Made by a program: the position numbers and the translations under genes. DNA of 45,285 nt from Nitrospirota bacterium (lineage in GTDB: Bacteria > Nitrospirota > Thermodesulfovibrionia > UBA6902): assembly GCA_016222905.1 (NCBI GenBank), contig JACRPZ010000032.1, forward strand, positions 1-45,285, written 5' to 3'. The notes under the pieces are model-generated. The model was given only the letters and a program-made list of their open reading frames with translations, made no database searches and was not told the DNA's origin. Below, in pieces: positions 1,752 through 27,789 of this stretch. Position 1 is the stretch's first letter, and every line of letters starts with the position of its first letter.

Positions 1752-2267
1752 TCATTTTCCCGGCTCCCGCCTAAACCCAATCTTGCCCTTCTTCGACTCC
1801 TCCGGTTTCATCAACTGCCTTATCGCGTCAAAGACAACTTTAAATTGAGTGTCATATTTCTTTTCCATGTCGGATAGTTTCCTGGCGAGGTCTTTATGGG
1901 TCGCGATCAGTTCGCGGAGCTTAACTAACGCCCGCATGATCTGAATATTAACCTCAATCGCCCTGTCGCTGTTCAGCACACTCGAAAGCATTGCAACTCC
2001 CTGTTCGGTGAAGGCGTAAGGAAGATATTTAGAGTGCTCGCCCCGCTTTAAGGTGCCAAAATGGCTCCTTAGAGATTCATATTCTTCCTTTTGCAATTCA
2101 AACATGAAATCTTCAGGGAAACGTTTTATATTTCTTCTGACCTGCCTTTTCAGTTGCTTGACCTCAACGCCATAAAGTTCGGCCAAATCGCTATCCAACA
2201 ATACTTTGTGGCCTCTGAGGAGATAAATCTTTCTTTCAATAATCTCAACAGGAATCAGTTCTTTCAT
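1752..2267 (-). CDS. ORF6N-domain DNA-binding protein
   Basis: 171 residues. Residues 9-95 match the ORF6N (phage KilA-N related) domain: [20 protein letters not shown], then [21 protein letters not shown], then the family hallmark [19 protein letters not shown]-terminal helix/coiled coil (residues 105-150) follows. ORF6N proteins are common in phages and as isolated chromosomal genes, presumed DNA-binding, of unknown role. Length is typical. A 14-bp piece of its own coding sequence recurs just upstream of its start (see the repeat entry), which is unusual. Confidence 0.8.
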
Positions 2268-2389: not shown

Positions 2390-3382
2390 CTATATCCCGA
2401 AAATACCATCATAAAAATTTCCATCTATCAAGAACTTGATCCTTAAAGCAAATATATTCTCAGGAAGTCTTAACCCTTTAAGCTTAACCATATCTTTCTC
2501 TGTAGTGATAATATCCATCCCCCCGGCCTCTTTGATCATTTTATCAATATCCCCTTGCGGATAATGATGATGGTCCCTGAATCTTTTAGACTTTACTATC
2601 TCCGCTCCCATTGATTTAAGGAGAGCTTCAAAATGATATGGATTGGCAATGCCTGAAAATGCGTAGACCCTTCTCTCTTTCAGCGTATCAATACTTTCAG
2701 ATTCTCCTGAAACATTGATAAGCGCTGCCGGCACATGAGATGAGGTATATATCGGGACGTCAGTACTATACCGCTTGATCTTGCTTATACACGCGGTGAC
2801 CCTTTTCTTATCCGCCATATCTGCTTTTGAGAGAACTATGATATCAGCCCGTTTCAGCGCGCTTAATGGTTCTCTCAGCTTTCCCTCCGGGAAGAGCTTG
2901 CCGTTATCAAAAGGATTTGTCGCGTCAATCAGAAGTATGTCTCTGTCCCTGTGAAGCTGCCAGTGCTGAAAACCGTCGTCGAGGATGAAAACGAGTTTTG
3001 AGTTTAGAATTTTGAGTTGAGAGTTAAGGGTAAATATTCCTCCTTCATACCTGTCTGCGCATTTTATTATGGGAACTCCGCTTAATGCTTCAGCCATTAA
3101 GAATGCTTCATCTCCTGCCTGAGATGCGTTCATCAAAGGCTTTTCCCCCTTTGTAACAAAACAGGGGTCTTTTGCCTTCCCTTTATATCCTCTTGTCAAT
3201 ATGCACGGTTTATAGCCGCGCCTTTTGGCCTCTTCAGCCAGCGCCATTACAGCAGGGGTCTTGCCTGTTCCGCCGAGAGTGATGTTGCCTATGCTGATAA
3301 CTTTACAAGGCAGTTTCTTAGGCTTTTTTAAAAGTCTTGCGATTTTTAAAACGATTCCGTATATTCCGCTAAGCAGCCCCAA
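2390..3382 (-). CDS. lpxK: tetraacyldisaccharide 4'-kinase LpxK
   Basis: Phosphorylates the 4' position of the lipid A disaccharide at the inner membrane, the last step before Kdo addition. 330 residues, near the usual length. The P-loop is GNITLGGTGKTP (residues 32-43, after an N-terminal membrane-associated helix). The LpxK motif LDDGFQHWQL is near residues 131-140 and TTEKDMVKL lies near the C-terminus. It overlaps waaA by 14 bases and ends the lpxB-msbA-waaA-lpxK run. Just before the LDDGFQH motif, residues about 117-130 are encoded by a 42-bp heptanucleotide tandem array, an apparent in-frame insertion in a loop. The catalytic motifs are intact, so the enzyme is probably active. Confidence 0.95.
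   Translation of the reverse strand: MGLLSGIYGIVLKIARLLKKPKKLPCKVISIGNITLGGTGKTPAVMALAEEAKRRGYKPCILTRGYKGKAKDPCFVTKGEKPLMNASQAGDEAFLMAEALSGVPIIKCADRYEGGIFTLNSQLKILNSKLVFILDDGFQHWQLHRDRDILLIDATNPFDNGKLFPEGKLREPLSALKRADIIVLSKADMADKKRVTACISKIKRYSTDVPIYTSSHVPAALINVSGESESIDTLKERRVYAFSGIANPYHFEALLKSMGAEIVKSKRFRDHHHYPQGDIDKMIKEAGGMDIITTEKDMVKLKGLRLPENIFALRIKFLIDGNFYDGIFGI
2993..3034. repeat. heptanucleotide tandem array inside lpxK
   Basis: Six consecutive 7-base units on the plus strand, consensus GAGTTnA; the first two are GAGTTTT and GAGTTTA and the last is GGGTAAA. Total 42 bases, exactly 14 codons, so the reading frame is preserved. The encoded peptide (TLNSQLKILNSKL) has no counterpart I know in LpxK. 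Confidence 0.8.
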
Positions 3383-4634
3383 GGTAACCTCTTACAAGTT
3401 TCAGCGCTTTTTGAACAGCGCCCTTATTCTCATCCAATATTGCCCTGGCATTCTCTCCCATCAGCTTTGCTTTTTCCGGTCTTTGTATTAACTCTGCCAC
3501 TGCCGCTGCAATCTCTTTGGCATTCTTAACCTCAATCGCGGCTGACCTGTTGAGAAATTCACCGGCTATGGGAAAATTCTCCATGTGAGGACCAAATAAA
3601 ATAGGATTGCCCCAGTACGCAGGCTCTAAAATATTATGCCCTCCGTAAGGCAATAGACTCCCGCCTATGAAAGTAATTGAGGCACTTGAGAAGAGCTCTG
3701 ATAACTCGCCTATTGTGTCCAGGAGAATAACATCCGCCTCTGTTGCATTCTTTATCTCAGAACGCCTGATATAATTCATACCCCTCTCTTTAATTATCTC
3801 CTCCACTTCACTGAACCTCTCAGGATGTCTCGGCGCAATAATAAGCTTCAAATTATAAAACTCTTTCCCCTCTGACCCCTGACCCCTGACCCCTTTTATT
3901 GTTTTATACGTATCAAGTATTATCTCATCCTCTCCTCTGTGCGTGCTGCCTGCAAGAAACATACGCCCGCTAATTCTACCTACCCATGCAAGAGGCGGTT
4001 TTTTATCAAAAGCAATATCAAACTTAAAGTTCCCCATAATTCCGACCTTCTCTTCTTGAGCGCCGAGCGCGATGATCCTTTCGGCATCCCCCTTCGTCTG
4101 CATGTAGAGAAAATCCGCGTATGACAAGACCTCTTTCATAAAGAACCTTGATAAATTGTAACCCTTAAATGATTTAGGGGAAAGCCTTCCATTTAAAAGA
4201 AGTATATGGGAGCCGGATTTCTTCAGGCCATGAAACAGGACAGGCCAGAGCTCGGTCTCAATCGTTATGAATACTTCGGGCCTGAGCGAATTGACAACCC
4301 TGCTTACGCAGAGTCCCGTATCCCACTGCATGTACATTATCCTGTCTGCTTCTGGGAATTTTTCGCGCGCTACCTGCTGTCCGGTATATGTAGTTGTGGA
4401 TAACAGGATCTTTTTCTCCGGGAACTCTCTTTTGAGGGCCTTTAAAAACGGAAGGCAGGCAACAGTTTCGCCGACTGAAACCGCATGAACCCATATGTCT
4501 GTCTTTGAATATGCGGATAATCCAAGCCGTTCGCTCAGGAATCTTGCCTTATCAGCAGATCCTTTCTTCAGCAAAAGCCATGGGAGATATATTAAAAGCG
4601 ATATGGCGGAAAGAAAATTATAAAGCAGGAGCAT
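3369..4634 (-). CDS. waaA: Kdo transferase (3-deoxy-D-manno-octulosonic acid transferase)
   Basis: Adds Kdo from CMP-Kdo to the lipid A precursor on the cytoplasmic face of the inner membrane. 421 residues, normal for WaaA/KdtA. It has an N-terminal membrane anchor (residues 1-23, ending in a KKG basic edge), then the family segment WVHAVSVGETVACLPFL with the catalytic-region Glu, LLLNGRLSPKSF, the FLAGSTHRGEDEIIL motif, IIAPRHPERF, and GGSLLPYGGHNILEPAYWGNPILFGP. Between GEDEIILDTYKT and LKLIIAPRHPERF it carries a Gly/Gln/Ser-rich insert encoded by a heptamer array. It follows msbA after a 170-base gap holding a dispersed repeat. Whether it is mono- or bifunctional cannot be told from sequence. 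Confidence 0.95.
   Translation of the reverse strand: MLLLYNFLSAISLLIYLPWLLLKKGSADKARFLSERLGLSAYSKTDIWVHAVSVGETVACLPFLKALKREFPEKKILLSTTTYTGQQVAREKFPEADRIMYMQWDTGLCVSRVVNSLRPEVFITIETELWPVLFHGLKKSGSHILLLNGRLSPKSFKGYNLSRFFMKEVLSYADFLYMQTKGDAERIIALGAQEEKVGIMGNFKFDIAFDKKPPLAWVGRISGRMFLAGSTHRGEDEIILDTYKTIKGVRGQGSEGKEFYNLKLIIAPRHPERFSEVEEIIKERGMNYIRRSEIKNATEADVILLDTIGELSELFSSASITFIGGSLLPYGGHNILEPAYWGNPILFGPHMENFPIAGEFLNRSAAIEVKNAKEIAAAVAELIQRPEKAKLMGENARAILDENKGAVQKALKLVRGYLGAA
3866..3893. repeat. heptanucleotide tandem array inside waaA
   Basis: Three perfect TGACCCC units (3873-3893) preceded by one degenerate unit (TCCCCTC). On the coding strand it reads GGGGTCA repeated and encodes a VRGQGSEGK-type loop just before the conserved LIIAPRHPERF strand. 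The reading frame is kept. Confidence 0.8.
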
Positions 4635-25250: not shown

Positions 25251-26147
25251 TCAGTCCGTTATCGTCTGGACAACTGCTCTCCAGTGATCAGTGAAAAAAA
25301 CTGCCGCTTCTTCAGCCTTCTCCAAAGATTCGAAAACCCCGAAGGCCGTGGAGCCGCTTCCGCTCATGAGAGCAAAAATCGAGCCTTTTTCGCGCAACTT
25401 CTCTTTTATCCCGGCAATGACAGGGAAACTCTTCAGGGTCACGGACTCCAGATCATTTGAAACAGCACCGGAATATCCGGCTATACTTGATATATCAGCT
25501 CTTTCAATACTCTGGATAAAATGCTCAATATTATTAACTTTATCAGCTTTTTTTGTCAACTCAGGCATACTGCCGGCTTCTTTACGGGAAACTGATAATT
25601 CTTTGTATGCCCATGCCGTTGAAATGGATATTGAGGGCTTTACCAGTAATATATGGAGCGGTTTTAAAGCCTTCTTCGGGGTTATCAGCTCTCCTCTGCC
25701 ATGCACAAGAGATATAGGACTAAAGAGGAAGAAAGACACATCAGAGCCGATCCTCTTTGCAGACTTACAAAGCTCTGCATTAGAAAGGTGCAATGACCAG
25801 AGTTTGTTCAATCCAAGAAGCGCAGCAGCAGCATCGCTGCTGCCTCCGCCAAGTCCCGCCCCCATAGGTATCTTTTTATCAATATGTATTGCAGCCCCAT
25901 CCTTAATGCCATATTTATCCTTTAAAATCAGGGCTGTTTTATAAACAATATTATCTTGAGGAGGTATCCCGCTTGTGCCTGAGATGGTTAAATCTTCTGA
26001 TGCAGCAAATGTAAGGGTGTCAAATAGGGTGACCTTCTGTATAAGGCTCCGGATTTCATGGAAACCGTCTCTTCGCAGTCCGACAACTCTCAGAAACCAG
26101 TTTATCTTTGCAGGCGCCTTTAAAGTGAAGGGCGATGAATCTTCCAT
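25251..26147 (-). CDS. ispE: 4-diphosphocytidyl-2-C-methyl-D-erythritol kinase
   Basis: GHMP kinase of the MEP isoprenoid pathway. 298 residues. Motifs: LKAPAKINWFLRVVGLRRDGFHEI (catalytic Lys and substrate region), the ATP loop KKIPMGAGLGGGSSDAAAALLGLNKLW and the C-terminal LMSGSGSTAFGVF. It meets the TPR gene at 26147 (ATG overlapping the TAA) and precedes tRNA-Gln by about 20 bases. Confidence 0.96.
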   Translation of the reverse strand: MEDSSPFTLKAPAKINWFLRVVGLRRDGFHEIRSLIQKVTLFDTLTFAASEDLTISGTSGIPPQDNIVYKTALILKDKYGIKDGAAIHIDKKIPMGAGLGGGSSDAAAALLGLNKLWSLHLSNAELCKSAKRIGSDVSFFLFSPISLVHGRGELITPKKALKPLHILLVKPSISISTAWAYKELSVSRKEAGSMPELTKKADKVNNIEHFIQSIERADISSIAGYSGAVSNDLESVTLKSFPVIAGIKEKLREKGSIFALMSGSGSTAFGVFESLEKAEEAAVFFTDHWRAVVQTITD

Positions 26148-27733
26148 TATTTTTCTTTAATCTTAAATCCTAAATCCTGAATCTTCTTCTCAACACGTTC
26201 TTTAAGTGCTTCTTCCTTATCATTGACATGAAGCGACTTGCGCCATGCATCAACCGCTGCTTCCTTGTTATTCAGCTTAATATATACATCTCCAAGATGT
26301 TCAAGAATAACAGGATCGTCTTTTGTAATATCCGACGCTTTCTGTATCTCCCGCAGTGCCTCTTCATACATCCCCTTCTTAAAGTAAACCCACCCGAGAC
26401 TGTCATGGATATAGCCGCTTTCAGGCTCCAGAGCAACAGCCTTTTTAATCAGGTCAAAGGCTGCATCAAGGTTAATTCCCATATCCGCATAAGTATATCC
26501 CAGGTAATTGAGCGCATCAGCGTGATTCGGATTGATCTCTATAGTCCTCTTAAGGGCGCTGAACATATCATCCGGCCTTTTTGTCTTTTCATATACTATC
26601 GCCAGATTAAAAATTATATCATCGTTCTCAGGAGCGATAGCGAGCCCCTTTTTAAAGACTTCCTCAGCCTTTGCATAGTCCTCTCTTTGAATATATAACA
26701 TGCCTATATCCAGAAGAATCGCGGGATTTTCAGGCATCTGAGATGCAAGCGTTTCGTACTGCCCTATCGCCTCGTCATACTTCTTCACCAGACTGAGGAG
26801 TTTGGCATAAACATATCTTACCTCCTTATTATCAGGGTTAGCAGAAATGATTACGCTTATCTCTTTCTCAGCTTCTGCAAACCGGTTGTTCTCTATATAT
26901 ATATTTGCAAGCATCATGTGGATCTCCATGTTGTCCGGCTCCTGCCTGATGCCTTCTGCCATAAGGTCAACCGCCTTGCTGACTGCCCCCTCTTTGAGAT
27001 AAATTACGGCAAGCCTTTTTCTTGCCTCAATGTTATACGGATTAAGCCGTATAGCTTCCTCATAATTAGACGCTGCCTTATTCATATCTCCAACAGCCTC
27101 ATAAGAAACTCCAAGCAAATGAAAAGCCGCGTCTAATGACGGCCTTAATTCAACAGCCTTTTCAAGCTCATTGATCGCCGGTTCGAACCTCTTTGTCTCG
27201 GAATAAATCTTTCCAATGTAATATCTTACAAACGCATTATCCGGCTCTATCTTTACAGCCTCCCCTAATACCTTCACCGCCTCATCAGGTCTGTTGCTGA
27301 TAACATATATATGCGCAAGATGTATGTAAGCATCCATCTTTTCAGGGGCAAGCTTTATCAGTCTGGCATAGATATCGCCCGCTCCTTTAAGATTTCCCTG
27401 TCTTGAATATATCTCTCCAAGCAAAGAGAGCACGGGCACGTAAGCCGGATTTTGCTTAATTACATCCTCAGCTATTTTAGCCGCATCTGCCAACTTTTCT
27501 GCCTTAAAATAAAGGCGGCTCATTTCAGTCCTGAGATAAACAGATCCCGGGTCTTCATTAAGTGCGAGCTTCAGATGTTCCAGCGCCTTGTCCCAATCAT
27601 ATTCTGCCTCTGCCGCAGCAGAAAGAATATACTGATAATAAGAGTCCTTTGAGAGTTCAGTGGAGGCCGTCTTCCTTGTAGTAGCGCATGCCGCAGCAAG
27701 CAATATCATAAGAACCGCTGTAAATATCCTCAT
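26147..27733 (-). CDS. TPR-repeat lipoprotein
   Basis: About 528 residues from the ATG at 27733, chosen because it puts a signal peptide with lipobox LLAAAC at the N-terminus (MRIFTAVLMILLAAACATT). The longer frame to 27775 spoils the signal. The mature part is made almost entirely of 13 or so tetratricopeptide repeats; a PDEAVKVLGEAVKIEPDNAFVRY-type spacing of 34 residues is clear. It is probably anchored in an outer- or inner-membrane leaflet as a scaffold; the partner is unknown. It heads the TPR-ispE-tRNA-prs-rplY-pth run. The last residues (QDLGFKIKEK) are encoded by a heptamer array. Confidence 0.85.
   Translation of the reverse strand: MRIFTAVLMILLAAACATTRKTASTELSKDSYYQYILSAAAEAEYDWDKALEHLKLALNEDPGSVYLRTEMSRLYFKAEKLADAAKIAEDVIKQNPAYVPVLSLLGEIYSRQGNLKGAGDIYARLIKLAPEKMDAYIHLAHIYVISNRPDEAVKVLGEAVKIEPDNAFVRYYIGKIYSETKRFEPAINELEKAVELRPSLDAAFHLLGVSYEAVGDMNKAASNYEEAIRLNPYNIEARKRLAVIYLKEGAVSKAVDLMAEGIRQEPDNMEIHMMLANIYIENNRFAEAEKEISVIISANPDNKEVRYVYAKLLSLVKKYDEAIGQYETLASQMPENPAILLDIGMLYIQREDYAKAEEVFKKGLAIAPENDDIIFNLAIVYEKTKRPDDMFSALKRTIEINPNHADALNYLGYTYADMGINLDAAFDLIKKAVALEPESGYIHDSLGWVYFKKGMYEEALREIQKASDITKDDPVILEHLGDVYIKLNNKEAAVDAWRKSLHVNDKEEALKERVEKKIQDLGFKIKEK
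26156..26183. repeat. heptanucleotide tandem array at the 3' end of the TPR gene
   Basis: Four 7-base units with consensus yTrAATC on the plus strand, the middle two TTAAATC and CTAAATC. It encodes the C-terminal tail of the TPR protein and stops two codons before the end. Confidence 0.72.
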
Positions 27734-27789
27734 TATATTACACATGAAAATTATTATGGCATACAAATTTGGCAAATAACAAACTGCAA

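What the first reader, a model, noticed from the sequence alone, without database searches (positions are those of the whole stretch)
2993..3034. Six-unit heptanucleotide array inserted in frame in lpxK
Forty-two bases of degenerate GAGTTnA units code 14 residues in a loop directly before the conserved LDDGFQHW motif. Six units of 7 equal 14 codons, so the frame is preserved. Three other genes in this window (waaA, bioA, TPR) carry arrays of different sequence but the same 7-nt period. A shared period with unrelated sequences points to a mechanism that generates or spreads heptamer tracts. Cyanobacterial STRR heptamers are a known parallel in intergenic DNA, whereas here they are within essential genes.
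Basis: seen in the sequence. Interest (0 to 1): 0.7.

Follow-up and report, generated by a model that had tools for sequence, protein, structure and literature searches.

The report
Seven-base repeat arrays invading bacterial genes
A small patch of seven-base repeats inside a lipid A gene is one of many such patches that keep appearing, changing and facing each other in pairs across bacterial genomes, even inside essential genes, and nobody knows what makes them.

Summary
The array is real and not chance. Period 7 beats every other period in the host genome sample, and the GAGTTnn family recurs at about 20 other loci.

"In-frame insertion of 14 residues" is only partly right: the loop exists in every LpxK and the array replaced its sequence, with little net gain. 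Thirteen relatives carry a heptamer array in the same loop, of this or of three to four other unit families, and sister species differ. A second LpxK loop behaves likewise.

The most telling property is polarity. Neighbouring arrays face each other, purine/G-rich arm then pyrimidine/C-rich arm: 56 convergent against 0 divergent pairs within 100 bp, in many phyla, all gene orientations, and inside reading frames here. Convergent pairs were already described for one Xanthomonas repeat (PMC4692102).

Best mechanism (inferred): 3' ends beside a lesion are extended with purine-rich heptamers and rejoined; in genes only in-frame, stop-free products in tolerant loops survive. Required roles for reverse transcriptase, Ku or RAYT were tested and not supported.

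The parts
2993..3034 (+). Heptamer array, six degenerate GAGTTnn units on the + strand (AACTC on the lpxK coding strand), a single pyrimidine-strand arm as read in the gene
2390..3382 (-). lpxK, tetraacyldisaccharide 4'-kinase, host gene of the array
   Evidence: Pfam LpxK 278.8 bits; Aquifex LpxK 4EHX E 8.5e-49; only match in its genome
2960..2983 (-). Codons of the conserved LDDGFQHW motif, just downstream of the array in the gene
3872..3894 (.). Heptamer array CTGACCC (3.3 copies, perfect) in waaA (3369-4634, minus)
   Evidence: Pfam Glycos_transf_N
26154..26185 (.). Heptamer array, TCTTAAA/TCCTAAA units, at the 3' end of a TPR gene (26147-27775, minus)
   Evidence: Pfam TPR

Best explanation
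The lpxK array is one arm of a dispersed, high-turnover class of heptameric arrays. SHOWN: unit families with a loose shared grammar (about R-N-A-G-N-Y-A on the purine strand) recur at many loci; arrays occur singly or as tight pairs that face each other, purine/G-rich arm then pyrimidine/C-rich arm; they appear, disappear and switch unit family at fixed sites between related species; inside genes they sit in tolerant protein loops. INFERRED: an array is made when the 3' end on one or both sides of a break or gap is extended with purine-rich heptamers and the ends are then joined, like the interstitial telomeric repeats of vertebrates. Both arms then read 5'->3' toward the join, and a one-sided event leaves a single arm. 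Most products in genes are lost to frameshifts or stops; the lpxK loop keeps the rest and has been refilled repeatedly. The enzyme is unknown, and no RVT_1-type reverse transcriptase seems to be required.
For: Period-7 excess. GAGTTnn at about 20 loci, 45 hits against 6 control hits. Same LpxK loop, different families, sisters differ. 56 convergent against 0 divergent pairs within 100 bp (p 6e-5 in this phylum, 9e-13 in others), in every gene orientation and inside reading frames. A 36-nt arm present in G142 and absent in G119; a pair whose two arms both differ in family between G142 and G119; a pair with the new family on its inner side in G052. Patchy presence within genera.
Against: Many pairs have 10-100 bp of ordinary spacer, which a plain break-and-join does not predict. 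No gradient of unit homogeneity from outer to inner end. No enzyme identified; Ku is not associated. In LpxK the two loops with opposite polarity lie about 100 bp apart around a conserved segment, so they must be separate events there or polarity must partly come from coding constraints.
Confidence: 0.42

Rival explanations
1. Hairpin (quasi-palindrome) template switching: one array arises by slippage, the polymerase then folds back and copies it, giving an inverted partner; later rounds keep the arms alike.
For: Arms of a pair share a unit family more than chance (0.69 against 0.57 +/- 0.013); both arms differ together between G142 and G119 at one site.
Against: About a quarter of pairs (14 of 56) have dissimilar arms; single arms are common; it does not explain why the purine-rich arm always comes first.
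Confidence: 0.22
2. Ordinary replication slippage and unequal exchange from local seeds, kept where protein loops tolerate them.
For: Short degenerate arrays with block duplications of units in some loci; slippage is well known for simple repeats.
Against: The same unit families recur at many unrelated loci and in many phyla; period 7 is singled out; fixed polarity of neighbours.
Confidence: 0.18
3. A small mobile element (MITE or REP/RAYT type) whose ends are heptamer arrays.
For: Y1_Tnp transposases in 24/25 array-rich against 15/26 array-poor genomes (p 0.002); inverted pairs as in REP doublets.
Against: Spacers of 0-118 bp look unrelated by eye and no duplication is evident at filled/empty sites; Y1_Tnp genes are not flanked by arrays; 3 of 20 array-bearing isolates lack Y1_Tnp; kinship not controlled.
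Confidence: 0.08
4. A telomerase-like or DRT-like reverse transcriptase with an RNA template writes the heptamers.
For: A bacterial reverse transcriptase, DRT10, makes tandem-repeat DNA from an RNA template (PMC12632851).
Against: RVT_1 is not detected in the richest genomes (G026, G031, G119, G156) and is not associated (10/25 against 7/26, p 0.38); DRT10 repeats are 9 nt and protein-primed. A reverse transcriptase too divergent for the model stays possible.
Confidence: 0.07
5. The arrays are selected binding sites for a regulator of transcription or translation.
For: Proposed for TAACTGA repeats near start codons (PMC4679880); intergenic location in other phyla.
Against: Here arrays are mostly inside reading frames, roughly in line with coding density (17 of 23 against 86% coding in G000), and change unit family at the same site.
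Confidence: 0.05

Closest known systems
GGGANTN / GGGGA(C/T)T heptamer repeats of Xanthomonas and Nostoc (Rehm 2015, PMC4692102)
   Same: Dispersed 7-nt arrays with degenerate positions, 2 to 26 units; convergent pairs in Xanthomonas; G-rich strand reading away from ORFs.
   Different: Those are one G4-forming family per genome, mainly near or between ORFs. Here many families without G-tracts share one genome, lie inside reading frames, mix within pairs and replace one another at the same site.
TAACTGA direct repeats of Beggiatoaceae, Cyanobacteria and Bacteroidetes (MacGregor 2015, PMC4679880)
   Same: Heptamer arrays, patchy over distant phyla, no transfer mechanism evident.
   Different: Single invariant unit, intergenic, near start codons.
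Cyanobacterial STRR heptamers (known to me and cited in PMC4692102 for Calothrix)
   Same: Short tandem heptamers, several families in one genome.
   Different: Described in intergenic DNA; unit sequences differ.
Interstitial telomeric sequences of vertebrates (PMC7215372)
   Same: Short repeat arrays gained at break sites, seen by filled/empty comparison, purine/G-rich 3' extension.
   Different: Made by telomerase from one template; here many unit families and no reverse transcriptase requirement.
DRT10 (PMC12632851)
   Same: Bacterial synthesis of tandem-repeat DNA.
   Different: 9-nt units, protein-primed, not reported as chromosomal arrays; RVT_1 not associated here.
REP/REPIN elements with RAYT transposases
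   Same: Dispersed short elements in inverted pairs.
   Different: No palindromic core; the Y1 transposase genes examined are not flanked by the arrays.

Membership tests
Heptameric simple-sequence repeat (general class) | Head-to-tail 7-nt units above chance | tested here: met
Heptameric simple-sequence repeat (general class) | Over-representation of period 7 in the genome | tested here: met
   sample, not whole genome
GGGANTN-type heptamers (PMC4692102) | Convergent close pairs | tested here: met
   for the class; the lpxK array itself is a single arm
GGGANTN-type heptamers (PMC4692102) | G-tracts able to form G-quadruplexes | tested here: not met
   GAGTTnA units have no G-tract
Cyanobacterial STRR | Intergenic location | tested here: not met
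   lpxK array is coding; 17 of 23 arrays of the sample inside ORFs
Phase-variable contingency repeat | Unit number differs between strains and switches the frame | not testable with these tools
   one genome per species held
Interstitial telomeric sequence type of scar | Filled and empty orthologous sites | tested here: met
   sites 33033, 41053 and 41695 of G142 against G119, 74-92% identity, direction of change not proven
Interstitial telomeric sequence type of scar | Made by a reverse transcriptase | tested here: not met
   RVT_1 not detected in the richest genomes
REP/RAYT | Transposase gene flanked by its elements | tested here: not met
   20 regions, 75 kb, 3 convincing arrays, none flanking the gene
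MITE | Conserved core and target-site duplication | tested here: not met
   Spacers compared by eye, unrelated; no duplication evident at filled/empty sites

The most novel reading that the evidence does not exclude
Bacteria of many phyla have a telomere-like end-healing process that extends 3' ends at chromosome breaks with purine-rich heptamers before joining, and it has repeatedly rewritten loops of essential proteins such as LpxK.
Probability: 0.25. Interest if true: 0.92.

Novelty: new variant of a known kind. Interest (0 to 1): 0.62.

Why it matters
The excess of heptameric repeats in bacterial genomes has been noted since 2007 without an explanation (as reported in PMC4692102). The rules found here (one polarity, a loose common grammar, interchangeable families at fixed sites, mostly inside genes in this phylum) constrain what can make them and give testable predictions. 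If the end-extension reading is right, bacteria have an unrecognised DNA-repair outcome that also diversifies protein loops.

Tried and rejected
Reverse transcriptase requirement: not detected in the richest genomes. Ku end joining: no association. RAYT/Y1 transposase: associated (p 0.002) but not flanked by arrays and missing from some array-bearing isolates. Age gradient from outer to inner units: none. Coding-strand preference of arrays: none clear. Paper searches for convergent heptamer pairs across families found only the Xanthomonas/Nostoc and TAACTGA papers. A call meant for an empty-site comparison on a Xanthomonas citri plasmid returned a record with injected effectors; the route was dropped and the record was not used in any array, pairing or family count.

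Full report
WHAT IS THERE. Window 2993-3034 holds six degenerate units GAGTTTT GAGTTTA GAATTTT GAGTTGA GAGTTAA GGGTAAA. 34 of 42 letters agree with a 7-nt consensus, reached nowhere else in the window nor in six Markov-3 shuffles; a five-unit GAGTTNN pattern with up to two mismatches is matched once, expected 0.00. The array lies within lpxK (2390-3382, minus) and codes TLNSQLKILNSKLV just before FILDDGFQHW. LpxK has a single match in this genome. That it is essential in E. coli is established knowledge, not tested here.

INSERTION OR REPLACEMENT. Aligned with relatives and with the solved Aquifex LpxK 4EHX, the loop is present in every LpxK. From R(Y/F) to DDG it has 17 residues in Aquifex, 17-27 (median 21) in relatives without an array and 20-39 (median 22) in those with one. 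The array therefore replaced loop sequence rather than adding 14 residues.

THE SAME LOOP IS REFILLED. The DNA of this loop in 13 relatives is itself heptameric: AACTCnn (L032, L033, L041, L049), AATTTCA (L042, L063, L064), AGCCTTC (L034, L044), CCCGTCA or CTCGTCA (L040, L061, L062), and a chimera of AATTTCA and CTCGTCA in L065; L040 and L063 are decayed. Sister pairs at 84-85% protein identity (L044/L061, L032/L034) carry different families. A named Nitrospirae MAG has an AATTTCA-type array there too. An earlier loop, after PCFV, carries purine-strand arrays in six relatives, one of them a complete facing pair.

GENOME-WIDE. In 445 kb of this genome, period 7 gives 24 arrays at 16/21 matches; the next best, period 14, is its harmonic with 13, then period 9 with 10; at 18/21 the figures are 13 against at most 4. 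A relative, G142, shows the same more strongly. GAGTTnn hits number 45 in the own genome against 6 for the reversed control. AACTCnn arrays are patchy across 295 genomes of the phylum, with 0, 26, 36 and 77 hits within one genus. The window's phylum is not named by the tools; Nitrospirota is my inference from 53% LpxK identity to that MAG.

GRAMMAR. An EM fit over 88 arrays of this phylum finds a common unit close to R-N-A-G-N-Y-A on the purine strand (GAAGTCA, AGAGTTn, ATAGGCA, GTAGCCA), log-likelihood 3.45 per array against 2.25 +/- 0.07 for position-shuffled units. It was found after looking at the data, so it is descriptive. A pattern built from it finds up to 272 hits in array-rich genomes of the class and 0-7 in most array-poor ones.

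POLARITY. Among arrays within 100 bp of each other (arms with more than 15% G+C), 15 are convergent and 0 divergent in this phylum, 41 and 0 in others, with 19 in tandem. Beyond 1 kb in the other phyla divergent neighbours predominate, 21 to 4, as expected if tight convergent pairs are the unit. Neighbouring genes may be tandem, convergent or divergent; in this phylum 14 of 15 convergent pairs lie inside reading frames. Arms share a family more than chance (0.69 against 0.57 +/- 0.013), yet 14 of 56 pairs have dissimilar arms. Convergent pairs and a G-strand reading away from ORFs were reported before for one Xanthomonas repeat (PMC4692102). New here, as far as the papers I could search show, are the generality over families and phyla, the mixed-family pairs and the in-gene setting.

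EVENTS AT ORTHOLOGOUS SITES. G142, G119, G166 and G052 are syntenic over about 50 kb at 74-92% identity. At one coding site G142 has both arms and G119 only the right one, a difference of exactly 36 nt; G052 has an unrelated loop. At a RimO/MiaB-like loop (named from the peptide, not checked against Pfam) G142 and G119 carry pairs of different families in the same place, and G166 and G052 carry one arm. A GCTCATG pair in G142 is absent in G119. In a fourth pair, G052's right arm has a different family on the inner side and the shared one on the outer side.

MECHANISM. These facts fit growth of purine-rich 3' ends toward a centre from one or both sides, followed by joining; this is inference. 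Vertebrate interstitial telomeric repeats are a known case of such scars (PMC7215372). Candidate enzymes tested: RVT_1 10/25 array-rich against 7/26 array-poor genomes (p 0.38) and not detected in the richest; Ku 6/25 against 8/26 (p 0.76); Y1_Tnp 24/25 against 15/26 (p 0.002, kinship not controlled), but its genes are not flanked by arrays. The rich/poor split follows array counts but was written down after the gene results were seen. Hairpin template switching may act as a second step that keeps arms alike.

LIMITS. ORF calls are mechanical. Pairs in other phyla come from loci selected for AACTC arrays. Contigs sampled in the own genome were chosen partly because they had GAGTT hits. The 10-100 bp spacers of many pairs, and the opposite polarity of the two LpxK loops (purine strand in the first, pyrimidine strand in the second), are not explained by the simple model; different tolerated peptides may account for the latter.

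Noticed in passing
window 1752-2267: An ORF6N-domain protein gene (phage-type domain) sits next to lpxK.
   Followed up: no
L063, L064, L061, L065 (LpxK loop after PCFV): The first LpxK loop of some relatives holds other, GC-rich dispersed-looking repeats instead of heptamers (peptides PVGAGLCACPGQPQGVAPTK and PPLTRGGIGG), so the loop seems to accept several kinds of inserted DNA.
   Followed up: no
L062, loop after PCFV: A complete convergent pair (GTAACAA / CTCGTTA) lies in frame inside one LpxK loop, of the same family as the array in the other loop.
   Followed up: partly
L147, spacers near 313 and 6692: Spacers of two convergent pairs in a Neisseriaceae MAG share TCAGGCTGCCTGA, a possible separate repeat element.
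   Followed up: no
G052 and G205: The reversed control pattern scores higher than the grammar pattern in these genomes (108 against 75 and 148 against 13), hinting at other periodic repeat families.
   Followed up: no
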